From positions 1 to 33,365 of the forward strand of contig JAIBFA010000050.1 of NCBI GenBank assembly GCA_019459325.1: 33,365 bases of DNA, written 5' to 3'. The first letter of the stretch is position 1; the number at the start of each line of letters is the position of its first letter. A model generated the notes under the pieces. That model made no database searches and was not told where the DNA came from. It worked only from the letters and a program-made list of their open reading frames with translations. This DNA comes from Thiobacillus sp. GTDB lineage: Bacteria > Pseudomonadota > Gammaproteobacteria > Burkholderiales > Thiobacillaceae. Shown in pieces: positions 3,941 to 19,558 of this stretch. The position numbers and the translations under genes were made by a program.

Positions 3941-4561
3941 TCAAGCGGGCTTGCGTGCGCGCAGCACCTTGATCTGGAACAGGGTGTTGCGCTCATCCTC
4001 TTCCAGCGCGGCACGGATGTGAACCACCGTCGCCTGGTAGCGCGGGATGATGTTGTACTTCAACGCGTTGACGCGTTTCTGCGTCTTGCGGCTGGCGGCG
4101 AGCAGGCGCCACAAGGCACTCTCCGCCTCGCCCAGCCGCGCCAGCGTTACGGTCAATTCGCGCAGCCGCAACCGGGCCTCGTCGAAGCTGACGTCGGTCC
4201 ACATCAATCCAACCGGCTGCAGCGGCAGGGGTGCGGCCGTGACGCTGGGGTATTCCACGCCGACGCTTGAACGTGCCACGACCCTGATCGCCACCGCCGG
4301 CTTCAGCCCCACCGAGGCTTGGCGCAGCATCTGTTCGCCCATGCGCATCTGCACGATGCCCAGCCAGCGATACGCCTCGGCAAGTTCGCGCTCAGTCTGC
4401 GCGCGCAACTCGCGGTACTGCGCGAGCCGCTCGTAGACCAGGCGGGTCAGCAGATCGCGCTTTTTTTCCAGCATCTGCCGCCCCTGCTCCAGAAAACGCG
4501 CCTGACGGCCGACCTGCAACAGCGCGCTTTTTGTAGGGGGAACGGAGAGGCGTTTCTTCAT
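3941..4561 (-). CDS. atpD: A/V-type ATPase subunit D (central stalk)
   Basis: 206 residues, normal for the D subunit, which forms the coiled-coil rotor axle inside the A3B3 head. The N-terminal PPTKSALLQ motif and the long helix after it (QGRQMLEKKRDLLTRLVYERL) are typical. So is the C-terminal helix around RVNALKYNIIPRYQATVVHIRAALEEDER, read here as three consecutive pieces. The start is the ATG at 4561 with GGAAGGA upstream; the longer frame to 4621 runs into a hairpin repeat and is rejected. It is the last gene of the cluster, separated from subunit B by 106 bases holding that repeat. Confidence 0.93.
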   Translation of the reverse strand: MKKRLSVPPTKSALLQVGRQARFLEQGRQMLEKKRDLLTRLVYERLAQYRELRAQTERELAEAYRWLGIVQMRMGEQMLRQASVGLKPAVAIRVVARSSVGVEYPSVTAAPLPLQPVGLMWTDVSFDEARLRLRELTVTLARLGEAESALWRLLAASRKTQKRVNALKYNIIPRYQATVVHIRAALEEDERNTLFQIKVLRARKPA

Positions 4562-4582
4562 GCGCCGTCCTTCCGGACGGCA

Positions 4583-4663
4583 GATGCAAGATTCAAGTTG
4601 CACGTTGCAAGAAGGATGCAAGCCATTGCTTTTCCTTGTAACTTGTAACTTGAATCGTGCATC
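4583..4663. repeat. Long imperfect hairpin between ATPase genes B and D (repeat copy 1)
   Basis: The arms at 4583-4611 and 4635-4663 match as reverse complements at 25 of 29 positions, with a 23-base loop. Two of the four mismatches would be G-U pairs in RNA of one strand. The arms start and end with GATGCA/TGCATC and share a GATTCAAGTT/AACTTGAATC core. A 23-base piece (4592-4614) recurs at 8534-8556 with two changes. It may be a transcript-stabilising or processing hairpin, or a small mobile repeat. Confidence 0.85.
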
Positions 4664-4667
4664 TGTT

Positions 4668-6046
4668 TCACGCCGTTCCCTTGTGATACTTCGCCAGTTC
4701 GTCTTCCGAGACCCGGATCAGCGTTTCCGGCGGCAGCATCGAGAGCAGATCCCAGGCGAGGCTGAGCGTTTCGTGGATGCTGCGGTCCTCGTCTTCGCCC
4801 TGGCCGATGAAGCGGCGCTCGAAGGCGTCCGCAAATTCGAGCGTGCGGCGGTCGGCGTCACTGAGTTCCTCGGCGCCGATGATGGCGGCCAGCCCGCGCA
4901 CTTCCAGCGCCTTGGCATAGCTGGCGAACAGCTGGCTGGCGACGTGGGGGTGGTCCTCGCGGGTGAAATTCTTGCCGACACCGTCCTTCATCAGGCGCGA
5001 CAAGGATGGCAGCACGGTCACCGGCGGATATACGCCCTGGTTGGCGAGCTCGCGCCCGAGCACGATCTGGCCCTCGGTGATGTAGCCGGTCAGATCGGGA
5101 ATCGGATGGGTGATGTCGTCGGACGGCATCGACAGCACCGGGATCATGGTGATCGAGCCGCGCCGGTTCTTGATGCGCCCGGCCCGCTCGTAGAGCTCGG
5201 CGAGATCGGAATAAAGGTAGCCCGGATAGCCCTTGCGCGCCGGGACGTCGCCGCGCAGCACCGCCACTTCCCTTAAGGCTTCTGCGTAGGCGGTCATGTC
5301 GGTCATCACCACCAGCACATGGTAGTCGAGGTCGAAGGCCAGGTATTCGGCCGCGGTGAGCGCCGCGCGCGGTGTCAGCAGGCGTTCGATCACCGGCTCG
5401 TCGGCGAGGTTGAGGAACATCACCACCTTGTTCAGCACCCCGCTTTCCTCGAAGCTTTCCTGGAAAAAGCGGGCGTCGGCGTGCGAAGCGCCGAAGGCGG
5501 CGAACACGATCACGAACTCGGCGGCCTCTTCGCCCAAGAGCTTGGCCTGGCGCACGATCTGCGCGGCCACCCGGTTGTGTGGCAGACCGCCGCCGGAAAA
5601 GATCGGCAGCTTCTGGCCGCGCGTCAGCGAATTCATGCCGTCGATGGCGGAGATGCCGGTCTGGATGAATTCGCGCGGATAGGCGCGCGCCGCCGGGTTG
5701 AGCGGCTCGCCGTTGACGTCGCGGCGGTCGGCCGAAATGATCGGCGGGCGGCCGTCGCGCGGCAGCCCGGCGCCGTTGAACACGCGGCCGAGGATATCGC
5801 GCGACAGCGGCAGCTTGAACGGCTCGTCGAGGAAGCGCACCCAGGTGCGTTCCAGGTCGAGCTCGTCGGTGCCCTCGAATACTTCCACCAGCACCGCGTC
5901 GTCGGCGGTGCGGATCACCAGACCGGAGCGGAGGCGGCCGGCGTGGTCGCGCAACTGCACCCGCGAGCCGGCGGCGACGCCGGGCACGCCCCCCATGACG
6001 ACGAGGCCGCCCTGGGCGGAGGTGGCAGTGCGGAATTCGATGTTCT

Positions 6047-6050
<4 letters not shown>
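4668..6050 (-). CDS. atpB: A/V-type ATPase subunit B (non-catalytic head subunit)
   Basis: 460 residues, normal family length. The nucleotide-binding core is recognisable (FIQTGISAIDGMNSLTRGQKLPIFS). The Walker A position is degenerate, reading SGGGLPHNR at 152-160 without the GKT lysine, as expected for the non-catalytic B subunit. The segment VLPSLSRLMKDGVG near residue 350 carries the arginine that normally reaches the catalytic site of subunit A. The ATG at 6048-6050 overlaps the TGA of subunit A (6047-6049) as ATGA, so translation is coupled. Confidence 0.96.
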
Positions 6051-7840
<1,790 letters not shown>

Positions 7841-7848
7841 CGTTTTCC

Positions 7849-8499
7849 TTAACCGTGAATCAGGGTGCCGAGATCGGGCGCGCTGGCGAACAGGCGTTCC
7901 ATCGCCACCCGCGCGAGTTCGTCGGCGAGGCGCGCTTGGCGCGCTTCGAAGGTCTGATCGAGTTGCGCGCGGTTGTCGGCGAGGCGCACCCGGATGCCGC
8001 CTTCGCTCGGCTGGCTGTGGCTGGCGAGTGTCACGGCGCGTCCCGGCGCGGCACGCGCGACGATTTCGGCCCACCGCGACGCCAGCACTTTTTCATCCTG
8101 CGGCCGAACTTCCGCCAGCAGATCACCCGGCGGCAACGCCTGCGCCGCCGACATCAGCCACGATTCGAGCACCTCCAGGTAGCGCGTTTCATCCTGCACC
8201 AGTTCCCGGAATGCGGTTTTCACCCCCGCCAGCGTGGCCTCGGTCAAGGCCCAGCGCAAGCGGTCAAGGTCGGCGGCCAGCCGCGTTTCCGCCGCTTGAC
8301 TGTGCCGTCTGACCAGCCGCTCGGCTTCGACCTTGGCCGACAACACCTCGCGCTCCCCGACCAGCTTCAGCTTCTCCGCCGACTCGGCAAGGATGCGTGC
8401 GCGCGCCGACTCGGCGTTCTGCAACTGCTCACGCGCCAGCGTCTCGGCCTGCTGCATGAGCGCCTGCTCGAGTTGGGAAACCTGCGCATCCGCTTCCAT
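7849..8499 (-). CDS. atpE: A/V-type ATPase subunit E (peripheral stalk)
   Basis: 216 residues. The N-terminal half is a long charged helix rich in alanine, glutamate and arginine (QLEQALMQQAETLAREQLQ, then ESARARILAESAEKLK), as in the stator coiled coil. The C-terminal half is a globular domain with EGGIRVRLADNRAQLDQTFEAR near residues 165-188, the usual E-subunit signature where the chain binds the top of the head. The start is the ATG at 8499. It lies 8 bases before subunit A; 97 bases with a repeat separate it from subunit F upstream. Confidence 0.92.
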   Translation of the reverse strand: MEADAQVSQLEQALMQQAETLAREQLQNAESARARILAESAEKLKLVGEREVLSAKVEAERLVRRHSQAAETRLAADLDRLRWALTEATLAGVKTAFRELVQDETRYLEVLESWLMSAAQALPPGDLLAEVRPQDEKVLASRWAEIVARAAPGRAVTLASHSQPSEGGIRVRLADNRAQLDQTFEARQARLADELARVAMERLFASAPDLGTLIHG

Positions 8500-8520
8500 T
8501 TATCGCTCCAAAACAAAAAC

Positions 8521-8596
8521 TTGAGTTGCAAATTTCAAGTGGCACGTTTCAAGAAGAATCTCAACGTCCCCCCTGCAACTTGTCACGCGCATCATG
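8521..8596. repeat. Degenerate second copy of the hairpin repeat, between ATPase genes F and E
   Basis: Bases 8534-8556 match 4592-4614 at 21 of 23 positions. AGTTGCA (8524-8530) and TGCAACT (8574-8580) form an inverted repeat around this piece. A CAACTTG segment followed by GCATC-like bases matches the far side of copy 1, but the arms are more decayed. It fills nearly all of the gap between the two genes. Confidence 0.75.
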
Positions 8597-8941
8597 TTAC
8601 TTCAGTGCCTCCGGTCCCAGCACCGCCCTCACCACCTCGTCCACCGCGGGCGCGTAATCGTGCGGCGCGGGCAACGGTGGCAGTTCGGTGATGACGATGC
8701 GGCCGCCTTCGTTGCGCAAGCGGTTGAGCCAGTAGCCGCCGCTGTGGGCGAGGTGCGTTTCCAGCAGCACCAGTGCCTCGTCGCCGCTTTTCGCCAGTTG
8801 CTCAAGCACCGTTTCCACCGTGGCCGCATCCGCATCGGCATGCACTTCGGCGCCGATCAGGCTGAAGCCGCCGGCGAGTCCGGCGCTCCCCAGCACCACC
8901 AGCCGCGCGCTGCCGAGCGGGAGTTCGGTGTCAGCTTGCAT
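8597..8941 (-). CDS. atpF: A/V-type ATPase subunit F (rotor regulatory subunit)
   Basis: 114 residues, matching the usual 100-115. The small Rossmann-like pattern of the family is visible: LVVLGSAGLAGGFSLIGAEV at the N terminus, a central EALVLLETHLA strand, and IVITELPPLP before the C-terminal helix. Subunit F binds the end of the D axle and can modulate ATP hydrolysis. The start is the ATG at 8941; the longer frame to 8995 overlaps subunit K. The spacing to the subunit K stop is 4 bases, which suggests coupling. Confidence 0.88.
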   Translation of the reverse strand: MQADTELPLGSARLVVLGSAGLAGGFSLIGAEVHADADAATVETVLEQLAKSGDEALVLLETHLAHSGGYWLNRLRNEGGRIVITELPPLPAPHDYAPAVDEVVRAVLGPEALK

Positions 8942-8945
8942 CGGG

Positions 8946-9383
8946 TCAGATCTTGCCGAGCAGCAGGATGGACATGACCAGGCCGTAAATCGCAATCCCT
9001 TCGGCCAGGCCCATATAAATCAAGGTCCGGCCGAACATTTCCGGTTTTTCCGCGATCACCGCGAGCGAGGCTGAACCGATCGGGCCCAGCGCGATGGCCG
9101 CGCCAATGGCCGCAAGGCCGGTCGGCAGGCCGACGCCGAGCAGGGCCAGGCCCTGGCCCAGGCTGATTTCCCCTGCCGCGGTGGCTGTCGGCTCCGCCGC
9201 CAGCACGTCCTGCACGCCGAACAATGTGACGCCGGCCAGTCCCAGACCGAACAGCAGCCCATTGGCGAGCAGGCCGCCCTTGAGCCAGCCTACCGGCAGG
9301 CGGCGCGGCTTCAGTTCCAGCCAGAATCCCGCACCCAGCGTGGCTGCCACGGGTAAAGCCATCATTGCAATCAACCAGGTCAT
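8946..9383 (-). CDS. atpK: A/V-type ATPase subunit K (membrane rotor ring)
   Basis: 145 residues with four hydrophobic helices, as in the 16-kDa ring subunits. The second hairpin is well conserved: GQGLALLGVGLPTGLAA, AVIAEKPEMFGR, and YMGLAEGIAIYG with ion-binding E128. The first hairpin is divergent, has a basic loop (LKPRRLP) and no second carboxylate. Against the Na+-binding Enterococcus hirae subunit, recalled from memory, the Q110 position is L99 here and the VET threonine is glycine, so proton coupling is more likely than sodium. The start is the ATG at 9383 with GGGGAGAGG upstream. Confidence 0.92.
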   Translation of the reverse strand: MTWLIAMMALPVAATLGAGFWLELKPRRLPVGWLKGGLLANGLLFGLGLAGVTLFGVQDVLAAEPTATAAGEISLGQGLALLGVGLPTGLAAIGAAIALGPIGSASLAVIAEKPEMFGRTLIYMGLAEGIAIYGLVMSILLLGKI

Positions 9384-9408
9384 GTCCTCTCCCCTTTAAA
9401 AATGTCCG

Positions 9409-11304
9409 TCAAACCTTGGCCTGTTGCGACGACAGTCGCAAGGGCACGAATTCCGTTCCGTCCCCGCTGAAGAAGCGCGAGAACCCTTCGTAATACATCA
9501 GGCGCAATGCCTGGATGGCGACAATGCCGCCTTCCAGCACGATGATGACGATGTTGCCCAGCACGATGGTGAACCAGTGGCCTGCCGTACCCAGCCCGTT
9601 GGCCAGGGTGAAGATCGCCAGCGCCAGCGCGACGTGGTTGAGGCTGAAGGCCGCCACCCGCATGAATGACAGCGTGTTGGAAAACAGGTTGATGGCGGTT
9701 TCCAGCGACTCGATGAGCGTCACCAGGATGCGCTCGCCCAATCCGGCCTTGGCTTCAAACCACTTGAACGCGGCCACAACGACCATGCCCAGCGCTGCCA
9801 GCATCCCGGCTGGCTGGGCGAGATCCACCACACCGGCCAAGCTCGCCAGCAGTCCCACGGCGCCGAGATAGAACGCCAGCCCGGCCAGCCCGGTGGAATC
9901 GAACAGCGCCTCGCCGATCCGTCCCGACGCCCATTTATTGAGCGTGTTCACCAGCAGGGTAAACACGATGAAGCCGACGCCGAACCCCACCGCGATGATC
10001 AGCACGCGGATCGGATCATGCAGCGGCGACAGCCAAACCGGCTCGATGATGTCCTCGTAGCCGAAGACGCTGCCGTAGAGCAGACCGAACAGCATCGACA
10101 CCGCGCCGGCTGCGAAACCCACCCAGGCCATGCGCCCGAGGCGCCGAGTCAGTGCAGCGGACAGCAGCAGGATCACGGCGCCGTGGCCGATGTCGCCGAA
10201 CATGGCGCCAAACAGCAACAGATAGGTGAAGGCGAACGGCAGCGCCGGGTCGAATTCGCCGTAGCGGGGAATGCCGTAGCTTTTCACCAGCGGTACGAAT
10301 GGCGCAAGCCAGCCCGGATAGCGCACCAGTGAAGGGACGTCGGCGACTTCGCCGGCGGAAGGCTCGCGCACATCGAGCCAATAGCGCCCGTGAAAATGCC
10401 CATTCAGCGTGGTGCGCAGGCCATCCATCTGGCGTTTGGGAACCCAGCCCGACAGTGCAGCCAGCCCGCCCCTGCCGCGCACCCCGGCTAGCGCGGCCTC
10501 GGCCAGCGGGTGCGCCAGGGCCAGGCGCAGGCGTGCTTCGTGCAGGCGCGGACCGAATCGGTCGCGCAGTCCGTCCATGATCTGGCAGGCCGCGCCGGAT
10601 TGCGTGTTCAGGCGAGTACGCTCTTGTTCCATCCAGCTGCGCGCGGCCTGCGGATGGGTGCGCAACTCGTCAGGCACCGGCAGTTCGCGCCAGCCCGCCT
10701 GGGCCAGCAGGCCACGCACTTCGTCCTGGCGCGCGCGCGGGCCGGCAATCACCGCGAACACCTGCTCGCCGACCTGATCGAAGCGTGATACCAGATGGCC
10801 TGTCATGGCCAGCGCCTCGGTGACCCGCTTGAGCCCCTCCACGGGCAGGCTGCCGATATTGACTGCCAGCAGGCTGTCGGGATGCAGCAGATGCGCGAGG
10901 TCCACGTTCAGCCGCTCCAGTCTGGCGAGCGTGACTTCCAGTGCGTCAAGGTGGCTGCGTGCCTCCGCGATCTGGACTTCGCTTTCGTGGCAGGCAAGGC
11001 AGGCGGTCCATACTTCCTTCAACCACGCGTTCAACTCTTCCAAGTCGGCCAGCGCCGGGGCTTCGGCATCGGCCGGAATGTTCAGGGGGCCGGTGTCGCC
11101 GCACTGCTCCAGCAGCTTCGACAGACGGGCTTGGGCTTCGAGCCAGGCTTCGCGATAGGCGACGGCAGGCGATTCCTCGAGCGCCTCCAGCGCGCAGGGC
11201 GCCGGATTGAAGACACCGAAGCGGGCGAGCATCAGCGCGGCATCCTGCGCTTCGGACGCCAGCATCAATAATTCAATCCTGAGCAGCGGATCGGCGCGCA
11301 GCAT
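9409..11304 (-). CDS. atpI: A/V-type ATPase subunit I (membrane stator)
   Basis: 631 residues. The first 320 or so are soluble and helical. The rest holds seven or eight membrane helices, beginning near FAFTYLLLFGAMFGDIGHGAV. The segment SNTLSFMRVAAFSLNHVALA carries the arginine expected to face the ring carboxylate, and the EGGIVAIQALRLMYYEGFSRFF stretch near the end is characteristic. It forms the ion half-channels and anchors the peripheral stalks. The ATG at 11302-11304 shares one base with the TGA of subunit C (TGATG), so translation is coupled. Confidence 0.95.
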   Translation of the reverse strand: MLRADPLLRIELLMLASEAQDAALMLARFGVFNPAPCALEALEESPAVAYREAWLEAQARLSKLLEQCGDTGPLNIPADAEAPALADLEELNAWLKEVWTACLACHESEVQIAEARSHLDALEVTLARLERLNVDLAHLLHPDSLLAVNIGSLPVEGLKRVTEALAMTGHLVSRFDQVGEQVFAVIAGPRARQDEVRGLLAQAGWRELPVPDELRTHPQAARSWMEQERTRLNTQSGAACQIMDGLRDRFGPRLHEARLRLALAHPLAEAALAGVRGRGGLAALSGWVPKRQMDGLRTTLNGHFHGRYWLDVREPSAGEVADVPSLVRYPGWLAPFVPLVKSYGIPRYGEFDPALPFAFTYLLLFGAMFGDIGHGAVILLLSAALTRRLGRMAWVGFAAGAVSMLFGLLYGSVFGYEDIIEPVWLSPLHDPIRVLIIAVGFGVGFIVFTLLVNTLNKWASGRIGEALFDSTGLAGLAFYLGAVGLLASLAGVVDLAQPAGMLAALGMVVVAAFKWFEAKAGLGERILVTLIESLETAINLFSNTLSFMRVAAFSLNHVALALAIFTLANGLGTAGHWFTIVLGNIVIIVLEGGIVAIQALRLMYYEGFSRFFSGDGTEFVPLRLSSQQAKV

Positions 11305-12347
11305 CAGCTCACCTCCGGGGGTGCGCGTTGCAGCGCCTGCCGGATATCGGCCGGGGCCAGACCGAGGTGCCGTCCGCGTAATACCGCGCGGACGGCACGC
11401 AGATCGCGTTCACGCAGGATCAGGTAGGCGAAGGCGCGGGCAATGTCGGGCGCGGAGGAGCGCAGCACCCGCAGCGCCTGCTCGGCCGCGGCGCGCTCCA
11501 TGCGGGCGAACACGCCGGAAATGTCGGTCACGCCGGACAACTGAATCTGCAAGGCCGAGGGCAATGCAGCCAGTACGGCCTCCAGGCTGTCCAGCGCGGC
11601 CAGTTCCTGCAGCCGCGAACTGGGCAGGCTGTAGCGCGAACCCACCAGCAGGTAATACACCTGCGCCGGCGGCAGCCGGTAGTTGAAGCGGTAGCGCAAC
11701 AGCCAGACCAGATTGATGCGGTCGATCAGACTGGCCATCAGGCTGCGGAAAGGCGCGCCCACCGTGTCTTCCAGCGGCTGGGCGCGCAGGGTCAGGCCTT
11801 CGTAGTAGCCCTGATCCAGTGCCGCATCCAGACTGAACGGGTCGCGGCTCTGCTCGAACGCACGCCGGGCATGGCGCACGATGCCGGCGTAGGGCCCGGC
11901 TTCCAGGCGGCGCAGCAGTTCGCCGACATCCTCGGCATGCGCCAGGTCCTGATTGTCGAGCCGACCGAACGCCCCCATCGGCGTCAGCCGGGCGAGCACG
12001 GCGGCGGGCCGTTCGCCGGTCATCTTGCTGCGCAGCAGCGTTTTCACATTGGAAATCTCGAAGCGCGCGGTCCAGAAGGTCAGAAAGCTGCGCGCGGCGC
12101 CGGACAGCGGCCGGATCAGCACCCGCGTCTCGTCGAGAATTTGCGCAATGATGCGTTGTTCCAGCGAACGCGGATCCTGCTGCCGGCCAGGCTGGAGCGG
12201 GTAAGCCGCCGCCAGCTGCGGCAGCCCGCGTCGGGTCAGCGTGTCGGCCATTGCCTCATCCGGCACGCCGACCAGCGCGTCGAGCGCTTCATCCTGCCAG
12301 AGGCGGCCGGAATACAGGCTGACGCGGGTGTTGAGATAGGCGGACAT
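11304..12347 (-). CDS. atpC: A/V-type ATPase subunit C (rotor-ring socket)
   Basis: 347 residues, mostly helical, a normal size for the C/d-type subunit that seats the central stalk on the membrane ring. Supporting segments are AYLNTRVSLYSGRLW at the N terminus, WTARFEISNVKTLLRSKM near residue 100, and YLILRERDLRAVRAVLRGRHLG near the C terminus; the last two are the best conserved in the family. The ATG at 12347 has no strong ribosome site. Its place between H and I differs from the common G-I-K-E-C-F-A-B-D order. The 76 bases between it and subunit H show nothing. Confidence 0.9.
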   Translation of the reverse strand: MSAYLNTRVSLYSGRLWQDEALDALVGVPDEAMADTLTRRGLPQLAAAYPLQPGRQQDPRSLEQRIIAQILDETRVLIRPLSGAARSFLTFWTARFEISNVKTLLRSKMTGERPAAVLARLTPMGAFGRLDNQDLAHAEDVGELLRRLEAGPYAGIVRHARRAFEQSRDPFSLDAALDQGYYEGLTLRAQPLEDTVGAPFRSLMASLIDRINLVWLLRYRFNYRLPPAQVYYLLVGSRYSLPSSRLQELAALDSLEAVLAALPSALQIQLSGVTDISGVFARMERAAAEQALRVLRSSAPDIARAFAYLILRERDLRAVRAVLRGRHLGLAPADIRQALQRAPPEVS

Positions 12348-12423
12348 GGTGGTCGGGCAGCGTGTTCCGGTCGGGTATCAGGGCATCCCCTTCCCTGCGT
12401 TCCTCATCAGGGCTTGGGAAAGC

Positions 12424-12741
12424 TCATGCGGTGGGGTCGAGCAGCAGGGTCAGGGCCGCATCCACCGCCTCGGCTTCGTGCCGCGATGCCAGGTCGCGCA
12501 GGGTGCGCTGGCGCTCGCCGTATTTGCGCGCGAGCTCGGCCACCGCCTGTTCGGCACGCCCCTTCGCCTCGTTCAGAAAAGGCGCGCTGAGCTCGGCACG
12601 GCCGGCTTCGAAACGCGCCTCGGCGTCACGCACGCTCGCCAGCGCGTCCTCTATCATGCGCTGACGTTCATGGCTGGCGTGCTGAATCACCGCCTGGGCG
12701 CGGGCCTCGGCTTCCAGCAGGCGTTGCAGTTGATCGTCCAC
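12424..12741 (-). CDS. atpH: A/V-type ATPase subunit H/G-like stalk protein
   Basis: 105 residues, almost one continuous charged helix (LQRLLEAEARAQAVIQHA, then RDAEARFEAGRAEL, then RAEQAVAELARKYGERQ), as in the short peripheral-stalk partner of subunit E. The call rests on length, helix character and being the first gene of the ATPase set. The start is a GTG at 12739-12741, only 4 bases after the hupE stop, with no clear ribosome site of its own. Translational coupling to hupE is therefore likely and ties the ATPase genes to the hydrogenase genes. Confidence 0.82.
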   Translation of the reverse strand: MDDQLQRLLEAEARAQAVIQHASHERQRMIEDALASVRDAEARFEAGRAELSAPFLNEAKGRAEQAVAELARKYGERQRTLRDLASRHEAEAVDAALTLLLDPTA

Positions 12742-12745
12742 CGAT

Positions 12746-13324
12746 TCACAGGGCGAAGATCAGCGCCAAGCCCGTGGCCGCGATGCCCGCCCCCACCATC
12801 TGTACCGCGTGGCGGCCGATCAGACTGCCGACGATGCCCACGCCATGCAAAAAAACCGTGGCCAGCATGAAGCCCAGGGCATACAACATGGGCGACGCGG
12901 CCAGCGGCATCTCCAGTCCGTGGGCGTAGCCGTGGAACAGCGCGAAACCGGCAGCGAGCACCATGCCGGCCGCTACCGCCCACTGGCGCCGGGTGGCGAT
13001 CAGCAAGCCCAGCACCAGCACCGATAGCGCGAGGGCAGTCTCGACATGGGGCAATGCGATGCCCGACCAGGCCAGTACGCCGCCCAGCGCCATTGCGCCG
13101 ACAAAGGCCGCAGGCACCGCCCACAGCGCCCGCCCTCCCTGCTGCGCAGCCCACAGGCCGATTGCGATCATGGCGAACAAATGGTCCAGTCCCAGCAGAG
13201 GATGCGCCAAGCCGCCGGAAAAACCCGTGACGGTGGCGTGATCGCCCGTGTGCGCGGATGCCGTCCCAGCAAACAGGGCTAATGCGGCCAAGGCAAACGT
13301 GCGTGAATGTTTCATCGGGTTCAT
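12746..13324 (-). CDS. hupE: HupE/UreJ-type membrane protein, probable nickel permease
   Basis: 192 residues with a signal-like N terminus ending SASAHTGDH and about six membrane helices. The HupE/UreJ signature HPLLGLDHLFAMIAIGLWAAQ is near residues 40-60, and FALFHGYAHGLEMP lies further on; these histidine and aspartate positions are thought to bind nickel. HupE proteins bring in nickel for the hydrogenase. The start is the ATG at 13324, with GGAGAG 8 bases upstream; the ATG at 13315 is an alternative. It lies 46 bases after hynL and 4 bases before ATPase subunit H. Confidence 0.92.
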   Translation of the reverse strand: MNPMKHSRTFALAALALFAGTASAHTGDHATVTGFSGGLAHPLLGLDHLFAMIAIGLWAAQQGGRALWAVPAAFVGAMALGGVLAWSGIALPHVETALALSVLVLGLLIATRRQWAVAAGMVLAAGFALFHGYAHGLEMPLAASPMLYALGFMLATVFLHGVGIVGSLIGRHAVQMVGAGIAATGLALIFAL

Positions 13325-13370
13325 TGCGTGCTCTCCAGTTGCGAATGACTTCAGCCGCATGTCGTCGGCA

Positions 13371-15134
13371 TTACTTGATCTTCACCTGCACCAATTCCTC
13401 GCCATCCGGATCGGTCACGTGCACGGCGCAGGCAATGCAGGGGTCGAAGGAATGGATGGTGCGCAGGATCTCGATCGGCTGCTTCGGGTCGTGCATCACG
13501 TGGTTGTCCTGCAGCGCGGCCTCGTAGGCGCCCGGCTGGCCGAGGGTGTCGCGCGGGCCCGCGTTCCAGGTGCTGGGCACCACCGCCTGGTAGTTGCTGA
13601 TCTTGGCATCGTCGATGACGATCCAGTGGCTCAAGCCGCCGCGCGGCGCTTCCATCAGGCCGACCCCCTGCATGTGGCTGGGCCAAGTCGACGGATCCCA
13701 GTACTGGTCGTTGAAGGTGCGGACGTCGCCGGCCTTGATGTTGGCCATCAGCTGGTCGAACCAGCCCTGCATGGCATCGGCCAGGATTTTCGATTCCAGC
13801 GTGCGCGCGGCGGTGCGGCCGAGCGTGGAGAACAGCGCATCGACCGGCACGTCGAGCGTCTTCAGTGTCAGCCCCACCAGTTCCTTCGCCTGGGCGTTGC
13901 CGCTGGCGTACAGCATCAGCACGCGGGCGAGCGGGCCGACTTCCATCGAGTGGCCCTTCCAGCGCGGCGATTTCAGCCAGGAATATTTCTGCTCGACATC
14001 GAGGTGCTGGTAAGGCGGCTTCGGCCCGGTGTAGTTGAGTTCCGTCTCGCCCCGGAACGGGTGCAGGCCCTGCTTGTCGCCCTGGCTGTACTTGTACCAG
14101 GAGTGGCTGACGTATTCCTGGATTTCGTTGTCCGCATCCAGATCGATGGGATGGATGGTGGACAGGTCGCGGTTGAGGATGACGCCGCGCGGGATGAGAT
14201 AGGAATCGGTGTCCCAGAAGCCTTTCGAGGGCAGGTCGCCGAAGGTCATGAAGTTGCCCAGTCCTTCTCCGCGCCCGCCCCAGTCCTTGTAGAACCCGGC
14301 GATGGCGAGGGTGTCTGGCACGTAGACCTGGTCGACGAAATCGCGCATTTGTCGGATGACGTTCTGCACCGTCTGCAGGCCGACCATGTTGAGCGCGGTG
14401 GCGTCCTGGCCGCCGCCGCTGGTGTGCACGGATATGGCCGAGGGCACGCCGCCCACCACGAAGTTGGGGTGCGGGTTCTTGCCGCCGAAGATGGTGTGCA
14501 GCTTGACCACGTCGCGCTGCCAGGCGAGCGCGTCGAGATAGTGCGCCACCGCCATCAGGTTGGCTTCGGGCGGCAGCTTGTAGGCGGGATGGCCCCAGTA
14601 GGCGTTGGCGAAAATGCCGAGCTGGCCCTGTTCGACGAAGGTCTTCACCTTCTTCTGCACGTCGGCGAAGTAGCCCGGCGAGGACCTGGGATAGTTCGAG
14701 AGCGATTGCGCCAGCGTCGAGGTGGCCTTGGGATCGGCCTTCAGCGCCGACACCACGTCGACCCAGTCGAGAGCGTGCAGGTGATAGAAGTGCATCACGT
14801 GATCGTGCACGAACTGCGCCCCGATCATCAGGTTGCGGATCAGCTCCGCGTTTTGCGGAATGCTGTAGCTGGGGATCGCGCGATGCAGCGCATCCTCCAC
14901 CGAACGCACCGAGGCGATGCCGTGCACCAGCGTGCAGACGCCGCAGATGCGCTGGGCGAAGGCCCAGGCGTCGCGCGGGTCGCGCCCACGCAGGATGATC
15001 TCGATGCCGCGCACCATGGTGCCGGCGGAATACGCACTGGTGATCTTGCCGTCGGCGTCGGTTTCCGCCTCGATGCGCAGATGGCCCTCGATGCGGGTGA
15101 TGGGGTCGACGACGATGCGTTGTGCAGTGGTCAT
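13371..15134 (-). CDS. hynL: [NiFe] hydrogenase large subunit, Isp-type (group 1e-like)
   Basis: 587 residues. The four nickel-binding cysteines are in place: RICGVC at 62-67 and DPCIACAVH at 564-572. The 15 residues after H572 are the tail removed by the maturation protease once nickel is inserted. The subunit splits H2 at the NiFe(CN)2CO site and is exported with the small subunit, since it has no signal of its own. It is the fourth structural gene of the order hynS-isp1-isp2-hynL known from Thiocapsa and Thiobacillus. The ATG lies 4 bases after the isp2 stop, with GGAGG inside the isp2 tail. Confidence 0.97.
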   Translation of the reverse strand: MTTAQRIVVDPITRIEGHLRIEAETDADGKITSAYSAGTMVRGIEIILRGRDPRDAWAFAQRICGVCTLVHGIASVRSVEDALHRAIPSYSIPQNAELIRNLMIGAQFVHDHVMHFYHLHALDWVDVVSALKADPKATSTLAQSLSNYPRSSPGYFADVQKKVKTFVEQGQLGIFANAYWGHPAYKLPPEANLMAVAHYLDALAWQRDVVKLHTIFGGKNPHPNFVVGGVPSAISVHTSGGGQDATALNMVGLQTVQNVIRQMRDFVDQVYVPDTLAIAGFYKDWGGRGEGLGNFMTFGDLPSKGFWDTDSYLIPRGVILNRDLSTIHPIDLDADNEIQEYVSHSWYKYSQGDKQGLHPFRGETELNYTGPKPPYQHLDVEQKYSWLKSPRWKGHSMEVGPLARVLMLYASGNAQAKELVGLTLKTLDVPVDALFSTLGRTAARTLESKILADAMQGWFDQLMANIKAGDVRTFNDQYWDPSTWPSHMQGVGLMEAPRGGLSHWIVIDDAKISNYQAVVPSTWNAGPRDTLGQPGAYEAALQDNHVMHDPKQPIEILRTIHSFDPCIACAVHVTDPDGEELVQVKIK

Positions 15135-15138
15135 GTGC

Positions 15139-16401
15139 TCAGTCCTCCATGTGTTCGGCGAGCAGTTCGGTCAGGCCGAGCAGCTTGGTATTCATCTCGT
15201 AATGGTCGAGACCTTCTTCGATCGTGATCCGGCAGTTGGCGCAGAACGTCACCATGGTGTTGACGCCCGCCTCCTCGAGTTGTCGCTTCTTGATGCGGAA
15301 GACCTTGGCACGCAACGCTTCCGCCTCTTCGGTGTGGATCGCCGACGCCCCGCCGCCGCCGCCACAGCACCAGTTCCATTTCTGCTTGTCGGCGATGGGG
15401 ATGTAGTTTTCGGCCACCTGCTGGATCAGCGGCTCAGGCGCCTGCAGCACGCCGCCACGCCGCACGATCTGGCAGGGATCGTGCAGAATGAGCGGATCTT
15501 TCAGCTTGTCCTTCATCTTCAGCACACCCTTCTGGCGCAACTCGTCGAGTAGCTCGAGCACATGCACGACCTCGAAGCCGAAGGGGCGGCCGATCAGGTT
15601 GGGCCCTTCCCAGCGGATCGCCATATAGGCGTGGCCGCACTCGGGCGACAATACATATTTCACCTTGAGCCGCTCGGCGGCGTCGACGATGCGCGAGACG
15701 ATCACTTTCGCCAGGTCCGAGTTGCCGATCTGGATGCCCGCGTTGGTCGCTTCGAAGGCATCGGAGGCGAGCGTGAAGCTGATGCCCGCCTTGTGGAAAA
15801 TCTTCGCCAGCGCCTCGATATATTCGGGGTAGTTGACGATTTCCATGGAGGACAGCAGCACCAGATAATCGGAGCCTTCCTTGTCCACCGGGATCGTGAG
15901 GCCCGTGCTTTCCTCTGCTTTCCTGAGGACGTTGGCAACCGCCGGCCACTTCAGGCCCATCGGTCCACCGATTTCCACCGTGCGCTTGGTGGCGCTGCGG
16001 ATGCCGTCAGGTACATGGCCGGACACCGCCATGCCCTCGCGGAACTTGCGGATCATGTAGACGATGTCGTTACCCACCGGGCAGACCAGGGAACAGCGTC
16101 CGCACATGGTGCAGCTGTCATATACGAGCTCCTGCCATTGGTCGAGTTCTGCGTCTGTCACCGGCTTGGACAGGCCGACCGCTTTCTTCAGCCGTCCAAG
16201 CAGCGTGTATTCCTGCTCGTAGACGCGGCGCAGCGGCTCCACCTTGTGAATCGGCGTGTACTTGGGATCGCCGGTCTCGGTATAGAACAGGCAGGCTTCG
16301 GCACACAGGCCGCAATGCACGCAGCTTTCGAAGTAGCTGGCGATGGGGGCGTCGATGACTTCCTTCAGGGCATGGATGCCCTTTTCCAGTGAGGCACTCA
16401 T
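15139..16401 (-). CDS. isp2: Isp2, DsrK/HdrD-like iron-sulfur protein
   Basis: 420 residues. Two [4Fe-4S] sites lie near the N terminus (CVHCGLCAEAC and CTMCGRCSLVCP). Two CCG-type modules follow, one around SPECGHAYM and HDPCQIVRRGG, the other around NWCCGGGGG and TFCANCR; they would hold a heterodisulfide-reductase-type cluster. No signal peptide is seen, so it should sit on the cytoplasmic side, bound to Isp1. It is thought to carry electrons between the hydrogenase and the quinone pool or a cytoplasmic partner; the resemblance to DsrK suggests a thiol/disulfide partner. The start is the ATG at 16401 with GGAGGAAG upstream. Confidence 0.95.
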   Translation of the reverse strand: MSASLEKGIHALKEVIDAPIASYFESCVHCGLCAEACLFYTETGDPKYTPIHKVEPLRRVYEQEYTLLGRLKKAVGLSKPVTDAELDQWQELVYDSCTMCGRCSLVCPVGNDIVYMIRKFREGMAVSGHVPDGIRSATKRTVEIGGPMGLKWPAVANVLRKAEESTGLTIPVDKEGSDYLVLLSSMEIVNYPEYIEALAKIFHKAGISFTLASDAFEATNAGIQIGNSDLAKVIVSRIVDAAERLKVKYVLSPECGHAYMAIRWEGPNLIGRPFGFEVVHVLELLDELRQKGVLKMKDKLKDPLILHDPCQIVRRGGVLQAPEPLIQQVAENYIPIADKQKWNWCCGGGGGASAIHTEEAEALRAKVFRIKKRQLEEAGVNTMVTFCANCRITIEEGLDHYEMNTKLLGLTELLAEHMED

Positions 16402-16474
16402 GCCGCTTCCTCCTTGAATATTTCAGCTGTCCCGTGGCGGGCGTGCCCGCCGGCCGCAATGCCTGCGCGCGGAC

Positions 16475-17134
16475 TCATACCGGCACCCCCTTGTGTGCAT
16501 TGACCCGGCCGTTGTACCAGCGCGAGCCGAACAGCGTGAAGGCATGGAACAGCTTGGTGAAGGGCAGCACGACGAGCAGGATTTCCACGCTCAGGATATG
16601 GAGTGCCAGCATCGTGGTGTAGGGCAGCAACAGATGCTGTACCGCCATCCAGCCGGTCAGCACGGGCAGGAAAGTCACGGCCCAGGTGAACCAGTCCTCG
16701 AAGGTGCTGAGAAAGCGCTTGGCCGGCTTGGTGATGCGGTCGACCAGCACCACCACCATGGCCGCCATCGTCACCACCGCCGCCAGGTCGATGAACTGTG
16801 AAGGCAGCCCCGGCCACGACAGGCCGGTGAGATTCTTGATCAGCAGGATGTGCGGCGCAAACCCGAACACGACGATGGCCAGGCCGATGTGGAAGATGTA
16901 GCCGCCGATGTAACTCACCGGCGAGCGCTTCAGCATGCCGGGCGGCGCCAGTGAACGCCGGAACACGGTGTGCAGGCCGGATGCGCCTGACCGCTGGCGC
17001 GGCGCGGCCAGATCTTTCTTGCGGCCCAGCGAGTAGATCTCGAACAGGCGCCACAGCACCCCCAGCAGGAAAATCCCTACCGCGATGTCGAGACCGGGAC
17101 CGCGCACCCACGTCAGAAATTGCAGTTCGTTCAT
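16475..17134 (-). CDS. isp1: Isp1, hydrogenase cytochrome b membrane subunit
   Basis: 219 residues with five membrane helices. Histidines in the helices (YIFHIGLAIVVFGFAPHILL and MLALHILSVEILL) are candidate heme b ligands, as in NarI and DsrM. It takes electrons from the small subunit across the membrane and works with Isp2. The ATG at 17134 follows the hynS stop by 2 bases, and its GGAGAA site overlaps the hynS end. A 73-base gap separates it from isp2. Confidence 0.93.
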   Translation of the reverse strand: MNELQFLTWVRGPGLDIAVGIFLLGVLWRLFEIYSLGRKKDLAAPRQRSGASGLHTVFRRSLAPPGMLKRSPVSYIGGYIFHIGLAIVVFGFAPHILLIKNLTGLSWPGLPSQFIDLAAVVTMAAMVVVLVDRITKPAKRFLSTFEDWFTWAVTFLPVLTGWMAVQHLLLPYTTMLALHILSVEILLVVLPFTKLFHAFTLFGSRWYNGRVNAHKGVPV

Positions 17135-17136
17135 GC

Positions 17137-18216
17137 TTATTTCTCCAGATCGTCCACGGTAATGGGCTCATGCGTTTGCTTGGCGGTGTTTTTCTTGGCG
17201 CGGTTGGCGAAGCTGACCGCCACGCCCGCGACCGCCCCTGCCACCGCAGCGGCAGCGGCGATCTTGAGCGGATCGGCCGGCACCGACAGCGCCTTGTAGA
17301 AGCCGCCCGCATCCCAGAAATCGGGCTCCGAGCAACCGAGGCAGCCGTGCCCGGATTCCACCGGCCAGGACGTGCCGCCGTTCCACTTCACCGTGGCGCA
17401 GGCGTTGTAGGTCACCGGTCCTTTGCAGCCCAGTTCGAACAGGCACCAGCCCTGACGTGCACCTTCGTCGTCGAAGGTCTTCGCGAACTTGCCCTGGTCG
17501 TAGAACGGGCGGCGGTAGCAGCGGTCATGGATGGTCTCGCCGAAGAAGGCCTTGGGCCGCCCCTTCTCGTCGAGTTCCGGCAGGCTGCCGAAGGTGAGGT
17601 AATGCGCCAGCACCCCGGTCATCACCACCGGGATCGGCGGGCAGCCGGGAATGTTGACGATGGGTTTGTCCTTGATGATGTCGGACACCGACACCGCGCC
17701 GGTCGGGTTCGGGTTGGCTTTCGGGATGCCGCCGAAGGAGGCGCAGGAGCCCATGGCGACGATGGCGGCCGCGCCCTCGGCCGCTTCCTTCAGGATGTCC
17801 ACATTGGAGCGTCCGCCGATGCAGGAATAGGCACCGTCGAGTCCCAGCGGAATCGAGCCATCGACGACCAGCAGATACTTGCCTGCGTTGTCCTTCATTG
17901 CGGCGTGCCGGGCTTCCTCGGCCTGGTGACCGGCGGCGGCCATCAGCGTCTCCTGGTAGTCGAGGGAGATCATGTCGAAGATCATGCCTTCCAGCGTAGG
18001 CGAGTGCGAGCGCGTGATCGATTCGGTGCAGCCGGTGCATTCCTGAAACGGCAGCCAGATCACCGAGGGCCGTCGTGCTGCAGCCATCGCCTCGGCCATC
18101 GCGCGTCCGGCAGCCGGCGGCAGTGCCATCATCGAGGCCAGCGTCGCGCAGTATTTGAGGAAGGTGCGGCGGGTGATGCCCTGCCGCGCGAGTGTATCGA
18201 TCAACGGACCCTGCAT
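17137..18216 (-). CDS. hynS: [NiFe] hydrogenase small subunit, Tat-exported
   Basis: 359 residues. The N terminus has a twin-arginine motif (TRRTFLKYC, R16-R17). The proximal cluster begins with ECTGCTES (C60, C63) and continues with GSCASFGG and PGCPPIP. The medial and distal clusters are served by DRCYRRPFYDQG, CLFELGCKGP, CATVKWNGG and HGCLGCSEPDFWD. A hydrophobic anchor lies near residues 315-335. The proximal site has four cysteines, not the six of O2-tolerant group 1d enzymes. The ATG at 18216 has an AGGAGG site. The 76 bases between it and hupH show no clear promoter. Confidence 0.97.
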   Translation of the reverse strand: MQGPLIDTLARQGITRRTFLKYCATLASMMALPPAAGRAMAEAMAAARRPSVIWLPFQECTGCTESITRSHSPTLEGMIFDMISLDYQETLMAAAGHQAEEARHAAMKDNAGKYLLVVDGSIPLGLDGAYSCIGGRSNVDILKEAAEGAAAIVAMGSCASFGGIPKANPNPTGAVSVSDIIKDKPIVNIPGCPPIPVVMTGVLAHYLTFGSLPELDEKGRPKAFFGETIHDRCYRRPFYDQGKFAKTFDDEGARQGWCLFELGCKGPVTYNACATVKWNGGTSWPVESGHGCLGCSEPDFWDAGGFYKALSVPADPLKIAAAAAVAGAVAGVAVSFANRAKKNTAKQTHEPITVDDLEK

Positions 18217-18292
18217 GATGCTTGCCTCCTGACGTTTAACACCACAGCCCTATAAGCTCGCCGCTTTAAAAATCCCCCGGCCTCAATTCACC

Positions 18293-18709
18293 TTAGAGGT
18301 CGGAAATCAGCAATTCAAGATATTCCTGTCCTATTTGCACATCCTGGGGATGGGCTTTCACCAGTTCGGGTACGAACGCCACTTCGATGAACTGCGAGGT
18401 GACTGCGCCCTGCTCGTTGTGATGCGTGACCCACCAGATTCCCGAACAGGCGGTCTCGTTCAGCGTGGATTCGCCGTTGGCCTGCAGAGTGACGTTGATC
18501 TCGCCCTCGCCCAGTCTTTCGCGCAGCCAGTCGAGGTCGGCGGGCGTCAGCGGCAAGGCGGAAAGATCGATGGCAGAGGTTTCGCCGGACGCCAGCAGGC
18601 GCTTCACCAGCTCGGACAGTTCGCGCAGCAGGGGCGGCGCATTGCCGGTCAGGCCGGGTTCGCCCGGCGGCGGATTGATGACATGTATGGGAATGGCGTC
18701 AAGCGACAT
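18293..18709 (-). CDS. hupH: HupH/HyaF-type hydrogenase assembly protein, single domain
   Basis: 138 residues. The C-terminal part (ACSGIWWVTHHNEQG, then FIEVAFVPELVKAHPQDV) is the HupH/HyaF C-terminal signature. HupH and HyaF are usually about 280 residues with two such units; this one has one. The family helps assemble the small-subunit clusters. The start at 18709 overlaps the end of hupD by 11 bases. It precedes hynS on the same strand. Confidence 0.85.
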   Translation of the reverse strand: MSLDAIPIHVINPPPGEPGLTGNAPPLLRELSELVKRLLASGETSAIDLSALPLTPADLDWLRERLGEGEINVTLQANGESTLNETACSGIWWVTHHNEQGAVTSQFIEVAFVPELVKAHPQDVQIGQEYLELLISDL

Positions 18710-19178
18710 GCTGCCATTCCTGGATCAGCTCGCGGATGGCTGCACAGGCAGGGGGAATGGCGGCGGCAACAGCCGGGGTGGGATGTTCGCCCCAGTCGAC
18801 GACGTCGGGCCGGATCGCCAGCAGCGCGCGCTTTTCCGGCCAATGACCGGCCAGCAGCGCGATCGCACGCAGATCGGTCAGTCCCACTTCATGAACCGTG
18901 GACTTGCGATTGCTCATCAGAAAAGCGTCCATGTCCTCTCCCTTCAACAATGCCCATTCACCTGGTTTGTTTTTGATATTGGCAGCATCGACGACGATCA
19001 GCGCATCGGCGTCCTCGATCGGTCCCGCCAGGGTAAAGGACAGGGTTCCACCATCGAGCAGAGTCACGCCGGGCCAATGGGCCAGTTCGGGCTCAAGCGC
19101 CTGTAGCACGTGAATGCCTACGCCTTCGTCGGTGAGCAGTGTATTGCCGATGCCGAGCACGAGCATTTTTGTTTTCAT
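18699..19178 (-). CDS. hupD: Hydrogenase maturation endopeptidase
   Basis: 159 residues, the family size. The N-terminal GIGNTLLTDEGVGIHVLQAL carries the first acidic nickel ligand. VVDAANIKN and the STVHEVGL histidine give the other two. The enzyme uses nickel in the large subunit to recognise it and cuts after the last histidine of DPCxxCxxH, here H572 of HynL. Starting at the ATG at 19178 it is the first gene of the minus-strand hydrogenase cluster, divergent from hypC. The ribosome site is weak. Confidence 0.93.
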   Translation of the reverse strand: MKTKMLVLGIGNTLLTDEGVGIHVLQALEPELAHWPGVTLLDGGTLSFTLAGPIEDADALIVVDAANIKNKPGEWALLKGEDMDAFLMSNRKSTVHEVGLTDLRAIALLAGHWPEKRALLAIRPDVVDWGEHPTPAVAAAIPPACAAIRELIQEWQHVA

Positions 19179-19327
19179 TGCGACAATCTATCAGCACAGC
19201 ATTCGGATAACAACCATGAAATTATTTCAAGCATTTGATTCTTAATAATAATTCCGTAATATTCGAATTCAGCCCGTCACCCGCCAATCACTTATACTGA
19301 CTTGAGTGTAGTTTCTGATTGCCGCCC
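19179..19327. promoter_or_regulatory. Divergent hydrogenase/hyp promoter region with a TGAAAT-T-ATTTCA palindrome
   Basis: This AT-rich 149-base gap must hold promoters for both hupD (-) and hypC (+). A perfect 13-bp inverted repeat, TGAAAT-T-ATTTCA, lies at 19217-19229 and could be an operator. TATACT at 19293-19298 is a possible -10 for hypC, without a good -35. No GG-N10-GC sigma-54 element was found on either strand. Confidence 0.5.
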
Positions 19328-19558
19328 ATGTGCCTTGCCATTCCCATGCAGATCGAATCGATCGAAGGCTATACCGCCCGTTGCCAGGCGAAGGGCGTGT
19401 GGCGCGACGTCAGCCTGTTCATGATGCAGGACGAACCGCCCTTGGTCGGCGACTTCGTCATGGTGCACGTGGGTTACGCCATCCAGAAAATTGCCGAATC
19501 CGACGCCCGTACCACCTGGGAACTGCTGGACCAGATCCTGGAGGAAAGCGGTGCATGA
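19328..19558 (+). CDS. hypC: Hydrogenase maturation chaperone HypC
   Basis: 76 residues beginning MCLAIPMQI. Cys2 is the essential residue that binds the HypD/iron complex and the large-subunit precursor, so the ATG at 19328 is the right start, not the TTG at 19319. VGDFVMVHVGYAIQKI is the conserved second half. HypC helps make and deliver the Fe(CN)2CO group. No good ribosome site precedes it. It is the first gene of hypC-A-B-D-F-E. Confidence 0.96.
   Translation: MCLAIPMQIESIEGYTARCQAKGVWRDVSLFMMQDEPPLVGDFVMVHVGYAIQKIAESDARTTWELLDQILEESGA

What the first reader, a model, noticed from the sequence alone, without database searches (positions are those of the whole stretch)
3941..19178. Hydrogenase and A/V-type ATPase genes form one apparent supra-operon
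Sixteen genes run on the minus strand without a visible terminator or internal promoter: hupD-hupH-hynS-isp1-isp2-hynL-hupE, then ATPase H-C-I-K-F-E-A-B-D. The hupE stop and the GTG of subunit H are 4 nt apart, and subunit H has no clear ribosome site, so translation of the first ATPase gene probably depends on hupE. It is known that Isp-type hydrogenases feed electrons to the membrane. The inference is that this rotary ATPase is made when H2 is oxidised, either to harvest the gradient or, running in reverse, to drive ion transport or uphill electron flow. I know of no described hydrogenase/V-ATPase operon of this kind.
Basis: partly seen in the sequence, partly recalled or inferred. Interest (0 to 1): 0.82.

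Follow-up and report, generated by a model that had tools for sequence, protein, structure and literature searches.

The report
Hydrogenase operon ending in rotary ATPase
In sulfur-oxidising Thiobacillus and some distant relatives, the genes for a hydrogen-oxidising membrane enzyme run straight into the genes for a second rotary ATPase, which suggests that the two energy machines are made and used together.

Summary
All sixteen genes are on one strand at the stated coordinates, with gaps of -11 to 106 nt. The hupE stop and the atpH GTG are 4 nt apart, and atpH has no ribosome site. The window is from Thiobacillus, judged by its named relatives.

The linkage is conserved. V-ATPase subunit C occurs in 66 of 117 family genomes. 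In 54 of these it lies 400-1279 nt downstream of hynL; three more are linked more loosely or on a short contig, three look unlinked, and six are undecided. Another order of the class repeats it (9 of 11 V-ATPase genomes). In two further genomes the ATPase block follows a formate-dehydrogenase-like operon ending in isp1-isp2, so the Isp1-Isp2 electron module may be the common factor.

Counter-evidence: in 15 of 19 other neighbourhoods from the class the ATPase has no relative of this hydrogenase beside it, and 19 family genomes carry the hydrogenase without it.

The ATPase looks intact and H+-type. Co-transcription is very likely; the direction (synthesis or pumping) is unresolved. Ten literature searches found no such operon. 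One paper reports co-expression of group 1e hydrogenase with V-type ATPases.

The parts
18699..19178 (-). hupD, hydrogenase maturation protease, first gene of the unit
   Evidence: PF01750 7.2e-18; TIGR00072 over cut-off
18293..18709 (-). hupH, hydrogenase expression protein
   Evidence: PF04809 6e-33
17137..18216 (-). hynS, [NiFe] hydrogenase small subunit with twin-arginine motif RRTF
   Evidence: PF14720, PF01058; TIGR00391 over cut-off; motif
16475..17134 (-). isp1, membrane subunit
   Evidence: NCBIfam TmcC 9.5e-40 and HmcE 4.1e-29, both below cut-off
15139..16401 (-). isp2, DsrK/HdrD-like iron-sulfur subunit with CCG domain
   Evidence: PF02754 and Fer4 families; NCBIfam DsrK 2.8e-65, below cut-off
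13371..15134 (-). hynL, [NiFe] hydrogenase large subunit, both CxxC nickel ligand pairs present
   Evidence: PF00374 1.7e-232; best solved match 3myr_B 1.1e-289; motifs
12746..13324 (-). hupE, HupE/UreJ family membrane protein (ORF can extend to 13360)
   Evidence: PF04955 5.1e-53
12742..12745 (-). 4-nt hupE stop to atpH start junction, no ribosome site
12424..12741 (-). atpH (V-ATPase G/H peripheral stalk), GTG start
   Evidence: PF03179 4.9e-5, below cut-off; conserved in position in relatives
11304..12347 (-). atpC (AC39 subunit)
   Evidence: PF01992 2.7e-50
9409..11304 (-). atpI (membrane stator subunit a), Arg549 in the conserved segment
   Evidence: PF01496 4.1e-27; alignment to yeast subunit a
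8946..9383 (-). atpK (rotor c subunit): two-helix leader plus one hairpin with Glu128
   Evidence: PF00137 2.9e-17
8597..8941 (-). atpF
   Evidence: PF01990 1.4e-6, over cut-off
7849..8499 (-). atpE
   Evidence: PF01991 4.2e-7, over cut-off
6047..7840 (-). atpA, catalytic subunit with P-loop GPFGAGKT
   Evidence: PF00006 8.6e-75; 1vdz 1.5e-213 (query 6047-7837); P-loop read in the translation
4668..6050 (-). atpB
   Evidence: PF00006 1.3e-76 and PF22919
4562..4667 (-). atpB-atpD intergenic stretch folding into a strong hairpin
   Evidence: z -6.1 against shuffles for 4555-4672; relatives
3941..4561 (-). atpD, central stalk, last gene of the unit
   Evidence: PF01813 5.8e-41
19179..19318 (.). 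Intergenic region between hupD (-) and hypC (+), with blocks conserved in most of 21 aligned loci; probable promoter region
   Evidence: alignment; sequence
19319..25052 (+). Divergent hyp operon: hypC-like, hypA-like, hypB, hypD, hypF, hypE
   Evidence: hypB (cobW) and HypD, HypF, AIRS domains = HypE; hypC and hypA named from their translations (recalled motifs)

Best explanation
The locus is one conserved energy-conservation unit. It makes an Isp-type (group 1e) respiratory [NiFe] hydrogenase together with a complete, probably proton-coupled A/V-type rotary ATPase that is separate from the F-type ATP synthase also encoded in the genome. H2 is oxidised outside; electrons pass through Isp1 to the DsrK/HdrD-like Isp2, and the resulting proton gradient is shared with the co-made ATPase. 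The block stands behind Isp1-Isp2-type electron entry: hydrogenase in most linked genomes, a formate-dehydrogenase-like enzyme in two. Shown here: gene identity, order, junctions, conservation and intact catalytic and ion-site motifs. Inferred: co-transcription, electron route and H+ coupling. Least certain: direction. I judge ATP synthesis under low-energy, oxygen-poor conditions somewhat more likely than ATP-driven pumping.
For: Sixteen co-directional genes with gaps of at most 106 nt. In the family, 54 of 66 V-ATPase genomes have atpC 400-1279 nt downstream of hynL, out of 117 genomes searched; two more are at 4.9 and 7.7 kb, and G115 has hupE-atpH on a 3.6 kb contig. In the order of G812, 9 of 11 V-ATPase genomes, out of 57, are hydrogenase-linked. 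G282, another family of the window's order, has hynL then atpH. The same block follows a formate-dehydrogenase-like operon with isp1-isp2 in G587 and G710. Linked HynL fall in several parts of the HynL tree. The ATPase has P-loop, Glu128 and Arg549 equivalents, and the Na+ ligands of NtpK are absent in 52 of 52 distinct K sequences. PMC11636981 (passages) reports group 1e hydrogenase and V-type ATPases sharing network neighbours, with F1-ATPase in the opposite group.
Against: No RNA or protein data for this organism. Three family genomes (G063, G089, G094) have the ATPase without adjacent hydrogenase in the stretch held, and 19 family genomes have HynL at 70% identity or more without PF01992 (several are incomplete drafts), so neither complex needs the other. 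In the class sample, 15 of 19 fetched neighbourhoods show no relative of this hydrogenase's genes on the ATPase strand, and neighbours tested by Pfam in 13 of these 15 are unrelated or unassigned. G880 and G890 in the order of G812 are unlinked. The linked ATPases form one clade only if unlinked family members are set aside: AU p 0.489 without L158 and L161, 1.6e-40 with them. The K subunit's two-helix leader leaves the H+/ATP ratio open. Nothing measured here tells synthesis from hydrolysis.
Confidence: 0.55

Rival explanations
1. The co-made ATPase is an ATP-driven proton pump. It raises the proton motive force when H2 or formate is oxidised at low redox yield, so that reverse electron flow to NAD(P)H or ferredoxin for CO2 fixation can proceed.
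For: F1 alpha and beta genes are also in the genome, so a second synthase is not obviously needed; Isp2 is DsrK/HdrD-like and may work close to equilibrium (the inference is mine); in Endoriftia the V-type ATPases group with rTCA genes and hydrogenase rather than with aerobic sulfide oxidation (PMC11636981 passages).
Against: The rotor subunit has one recognisable hairpin with one Glu, as in synthase-type rings, not the duplicated V-type form, though its two-helix leader keeps this open; no direct measurement.
Confidence: 0.3
2. The neighbourhood is historical: a V-ATPase block landed behind the hydrogenase operon in an ancestor and has been carried along without functional coupling.
For: Unlinked ATPases and ATPase-free hydrogenases both occur; a single linked ATPase clade is not rejected if unlinked family members are set aside.
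Against: The junction stays at -1 to 68 nt in 27 distinct hupE loci; the block stays behind hynL where hupE is not found; linked HynL fall in several tree parts; and a formate-dehydrogenase-like operon with isp1-isp2 stands in the hydrogenase's place in two genomes.
Confidence: 0.12
3. The ATPase is a sodium pump or pH/ion homeostasis device that merely borrows the hydrogenase promoter.
For: Bacterial V-ATPases such as that of E. hirae pump Na+; K matches NtpK best by sequence in the PDB.
Against: The NtpK Na+ ligands Q110, T64 and Q65 (numbering recalled) are replaced by L/V/I, G and I/V in all 52 distinct K sequences.
Confidence: 0.05

Closest known systems
Isp-type (group 1e) [NiFe] hydrogenase hynS-isp1-isp2-hynL, as in Acidithiobacillus ferrooxidans and Allochromatium/Thiocapsa
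   Same: Gene order hynS-isp1-isp2-hynL, subunit families and metal ligands; A. ferrooxidans is described with the same order (PMC7735108 passage). Closest solved chain 3myr_B; that it is the Allochromatium enzyme is recalled.
   Different: No ATPase genes are mentioned with that operon in the passages seen; here nine ATPase genes follow closely.
A/V-type ATP synthase operons (archaeal type; Thermus V/A-ATPase)
   Same: All nine subunits, P-loop A subunit, single recognisable rotor hairpin.
   Different: Placed behind a hydrogenase operon; gene order H-C-I-K-F-E-A-B-D (the archaeal orders are recalled, not compared here); rotor subunit carries a 62-residue two-helix leader.
Hyd1e / V-type ATPase co-expression in Candidatus Endoriftia (PMC11636981)
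   Same: Group 1e hydrogenase and V-type ATPases fall in the same co-expression group, apart from F1-ATPase (passages).
   Different: The passages seen do not describe a shared operon; a different organism.
Achromatium single-cell genomes (PMC4530308)
   Same: V-type ATPases are reported, and one of three genomes (WMS2) encodes an Isp-type [NiFe] hydrogenase (passages).
   Different: The ATPase genes are said to lie on short contigs and are discussed for calcite inclusions, not hydrogenase.
DsrMK / TmcBC / HmcEF membrane electron-transfer modules
   Same: Isp1 and Isp2 match TmcC/HmcE and DsrK/TmcB/HmcF models.
   Different: All these matches are below the models' cut-offs, so they are relatives, not members.

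Membership tests
Isp-type (group 1e) [NiFe] hydrogenase | hynS-isp1-isp2-hynL gene order with Isp1 and Isp2 between the subunits | tested here: met
Isp-type (group 1e) [NiFe] hydrogenase | Large subunit with two CxxC nickel ligand pairs; exported small subunit (twin-arginine motif) | tested here: met
   CGVC 64, CIAC 566; RRTF 16 in HynS
Isp-type (group 1e) [NiFe] hydrogenase | Isp2 with Fer4 clusters and CCG domain | tested here: met
Isp-type (group 1e) [NiFe] hydrogenase | Phylogenetic placement among reference group 1e sequences | tested here: inconclusive
   Best solved relative is 3myr_B, which I recall as an Isp-type enzyme; no classified reference set was available
A/V-type rotary ATPase | Complete subunit set (A, B, C, D, E, F, G/H, I, K) | tested here: met
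   (atpH below its Pfam cut-off, supported by position in relatives)
A/V-type rotary ATPase | Catalytic P-loop in A, proton-carrying Glu in K, essential Arg in I | tested here: met
   GPFGAGKT in the A translation; Glu128 invariant; Arg549 aligned with the yeast subunit a segment
Na+-translocating V-ATPase | Rotor Na+ ligands of the E. hirae NtpK type | tested here: not met
   Three ligand positions replaced in 52 of 52 sequences
Single operon | Same strand, small gaps, conserved junction | tested here: met
   54 of 66 V-ATPase genomes of the family tightly linked
Single operon | One transcript from hupD to atpD | not testable with these tools
   no RNA data
Dedicated synthase rather than pump | H2-driven ATP synthesis by this enzyme | not testable with these tools
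   needs membrane vesicles or a mutant

The most novel reading that the evidence does not exclude
There is a transferable 'respiratory dehydrogenase - Isp1/Isp2 - rotary ATPase' cassette in Proteobacteria. A low-potential electron donor enzyme (hydrogenase or formate dehydrogenase) with a DsrMK-like electron module brings its own proton-coupled A/V-type ATPase, working beside but separately from F1Fo at a different proton motive force.
Probability: 0.4. Interest if true: 0.8.

Novelty: new variant of a known kind. Interest (0 to 1): 0.62.

Why it matters
Why some bacteria keep a V/A-type ATPase beside F1Fo is largely unexplained (my own view of the field). A conserved operon that ties the second ATPase to H2 (or formate) oxidation through Isp1-Isp2 gives a concrete, testable reason in chemolithotrophs, some of them cultivable. 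It would also give the poorly understood Isp-type hydrogenases a defined energetic partner.

Tried and rejected
Sodium coupling was rejected on the rotor ligands. Plasmid carriage: no match for atpC in the plasmid collection. Sigma-54 and FNR sites: matches in the window were no more than chance (14 found against a mean of 20.6; 8 against 6.2). A second F-type ATPase: the extra PF00006 hits on C34 and C16 are FliI and the one on C29 is Rho; the pair on C24 is F1 alpha and beta; the genome is 87.8% complete. Structure of the K subunit: the model (pLDDT 74.7, pTM 0.52) and its PDB matches (no E below 0.001) did not decide whether the leader is a degenerate second hairpin. The hairpin between atpB and atpD was considered as a terminator, but there is no T run, and relatives carry unrelated palindromes in the same gap.

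Literature: ten searches found no description of a hydrogenase/V-ATPase operon in the held open-access library. Subscription papers are mostly missing, and I did not look for the T. denitrificans genome paper by name. Passages only were read from PMC6397845, PMC7735108, PMC11636981, PMC4530308 and PMC4154653; other papers were seen only in search listings.
Full report
What is there. Sixteen genes lie on the minus strand from 19178 down to 3941: hupD, hupH, hynS, isp1, isp2, hynL, hupE, then ATPase H, C, I, K, F, E, A, B, D. Gaps run from -11 to 106 nt (atpA was entered there three bases short, its ATG is at 7840). The hupE TGA and the atpH GTG are separated by 4 nt, and the best ribosome-site match before atpH is 3 of 7; atpC has the same weak score. 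No minus-strand sigma-70-like site was found in 3600-22000, and terminator-like sites are no more common than in shuffles. A divergent hyp operon starts at about 19319. The region before hupD holds blocks conserved in most of 21 aligned loci, with and without the ATPase. The window is contig C108 of a 3.07 Mb genome; the nearest named records are Thiobacillus and Hydrogenophilales metagenome-assembled genomes, from which I take genus and family names. The genome searches use unnamed groups.

Is the linkage conserved? In 56 genomes of the genus, subunit C (PF01992) is in 25 and HynL (E at most 1e-50) in 40. In the family, PF01992 is in 66 of 117 genomes and HynL in 92 of 117. For the comparison of coordinates I entered one place for each of the 66 genomes (of split matches in G008, G020, G058 and G087 one piece) and the HynL matches of 70% identity or more, in 83 genomes. 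Left out were the weaker paralogues (49-59%), the 65% partial match of G059 that holds a stop, and one piece of the split G071. Result: 54 of 66 have atpC 400-1279 nt downstream of hynL on the same strand; G095 and G091 have it 4.9 and 7.7 kb downstream. G115 has hupE-atpH on a 3.6 kb contig, with no HynL found in that draft. G063, G089 and G094 have no hydrogenase gene upstream of the ATPase in the stretch held, about 7, 10 and 2.8 kb. The remaining six (G054, G058, G067, G081, G085, G109) lie near contig ends or on fragments, only G067 and G081 were fetched, and they are undecided. Nineteen genomes on the HynL list lack PF01992. G089 is Parasulfuritortus cantonensis by a shared contig length of 120,647. 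G002 has the size I recall for T. denitrificans ATCC 25259.

Named records. Where hupE gives no match, as in L026, L030, L035, L043 and L045, atpH follows hynL. Among 51 distinct junctions, 27 hupE-atpH gaps are -1 to 68 nt, 19 hynL-atpH gaps are 34-415 nt, two hynL cases and one hupE case have inserted DNA (3.2-7.4 kb), and two have isp2 in front. Starts were chosen mechanically as the nearest start codon upstream of the match.

How far does it reach? In 399 genomes of the order, 12 have PF01992 and nine of these are in the family; of the other three, G282 is linked (hynL then atpH), G245 starts at the contig end and G471 is not linked. In 369 genomes of the class, 22 match, 21 over the cut-off. 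I fetched 19 neighbourhoods, leaving out the window's own genome, the weak hit G716 and the fragmentary G791. G812 has the whole hydrogenase unit, G587 and G710 have a different unit (below), G861 is at a contig end. In the other 15 the window's hydrogenase proteins find no relative on the ATPase strand; in one of them (G636, L208) two weak HynL-like matches of 31-33% lie on the opposite strand about 4 kb away and were not followed. Hydrogenases of other kinds would have been missed. Neighbours in 13 of the 15 were tested with Pfam and are unrelated or unassigned, such as ferrochelatase, FtsH, MFS, NifZ or EAL-GGDEF proteins. In the order of G812, 11 of 57 genomes have PF01992 and 9 of 11 are hydrogenase-linked; G880 and G890 are not. 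G812 has the contig length I recall for Sulfurifustis variabilis; this is recollection, not a result. In 398 genomes of the phylum, four match and two are over the cut-off, the window's and G923, whose wider neighbourhood I did not fetch. The family of G282 has PF01992 in 2 of 4 genomes, the two already seen.

A second electron donor. In G587 the ATPase block follows a NarJ/TorD-like chaperone, a 971-residue molybdopterin enzyme, a Fer4-type iron-sulfur subunit, a cytochrome b561, and isp1-like and isp2-like genes; G710 has the same genes at 90-100% identity. These two are the only genomes of their order held. The best NCBIfam match of the large subunit is formate dehydrogenase alpha, below the cut-off, so 'formate-dehydrogenase-like' is as far as I go. 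The isp2 there is 59% identical to the window's. This is the main reason to see Isp1-Isp2, not hydrogenase as such, as the common partner.

History. On an AtpA+AtpB tree of 46 rows (quick search, SH-aLRT support only) the hydrogenase label needs six changes, at least five of them forced by starred branches. Holding all 26 hydrogenase-linked rows together is not rejected against 14 rows (AU p 0.489). This leaves out L159, L166 and L167 (contig ends), L157 (G094, counted above as unlinked), and the unlinked family members L158 and L161; with those last two counted it is rejected (p 1.6e-40). The groups were named after the tree was seen. On the HynL tree of 94 rows (36 linked, 45 unlinked, 13 undecided) the label needs 11 changes, at least five forced by starred branches. 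The association is therefore either old and often lost, or formed more than once; the data do not decide.

What does the ATPase do? The A subunit has a P-loop and matches the archaeal A-type subunit 1vdz at 1.5e-213. K keeps Glu128, but the NtpK sodium ligands are absent in 52 of 52 distinct K sequences, so proton coupling is likely. (One counter line used the wrong column; one search has the right one.) K has one recognisable hairpin, as in synthase-type rings, preceded by a 62-residue stretch with two hydrophobic segments that ends in an alanine invariant in 19 sequences. If it is removed, the ring is synthase-like; if kept, the ratio of protons to ATP would be lower. The structure model does not settle this. 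F1 alpha and beta genes are also in the genome, on C24.

Independent support. PMC11636981 (passages) reports for the Riftia symbiont that hydrogenases, V-type ATPases and denitrification genes group with the rTCA cycle, while F1-ATPase groups with the Calvin cycle and sulfide oxidation. It does not, in the passages seen, describe a shared operon or the ATPase's direction.

Verdict. Co-production of the two complexes is very likely; a shared energetic role is likely; the direction is open, with synthesis slightly favoured. Both complexes are known kinds; their conserved union, and the formate-dehydrogenase-like version, were not described in anything my searches reached.

Noticed in passing
window 4562-4667: The atpB-atpD gap folds into a very strong hairpin (z -6.1). 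Several other Thiobacillus-group loci carry unrelated strong palindromes in the same gap, while many other loci have a 4-nt overlap. It could set transcript stability or the A3B3:D1 ratio.
   Followed up: partly
window 8946-9383: The rotor subunit K has a conserved 62-residue, two-helix leader ending in an invariant alanine before the single c-type hairpin.
   Followed up: partly
L162 10288-14553; L055 12753-15644; L207 8379-11075: Large GGDEF-EAL genes stand directly upstream of atpH in three lineages, in two of them between hydrogenase and ATPase (Pfam for L055 and L207; L162 recognised by eye in its translation). A c-di-GMP link to the ATPase is conceivable.
   Followed up: partly
L199 5494-13082; L200: Formate-dehydrogenase-like operon with isp1-isp2 directly in front of the V-ATPase block, without a hydrogenase match.
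   Followed up: yes
L040, L042, L046, L047: Hydrogenases from records labelled Rhodoferax nest inside the clade that holds the Thiobacillaceae HynL, and no ATPase was found beside them, which looks like transfer of the hydrogenase alone.
   Followed up: no
genomes G008 (C92) and G020 (C215): The atpC match is split into two neighbouring pieces, possibly a frameshift in gene or assembly.
   Followed up: no
genome G043 (C22 and C6): Two HynL copies, each 93% identical to the window's, in one genome without a PF01992 match.
   Followed up: no
L208 8528-9871: Two weak HynL-like matches (31-33%) on the strand opposite to the ATPase, about 4 kb away, in a genome counted as unlinked.
   Followed up: no
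window 28779-32898: A LuxR-type response regulator and a PilJ/HAMP/GAF histidine kinase (NarL/NarX-like) with an MFS transporter beyond the hyp operon, suggesting a nitrate-respiration context.
   Followed up: no
window 25100-28100: The four ORFs tested here (25164-25454, 25510-27063, 27036-27659, 27669-28055, all +) have no Pfam match.
   Followed up: no
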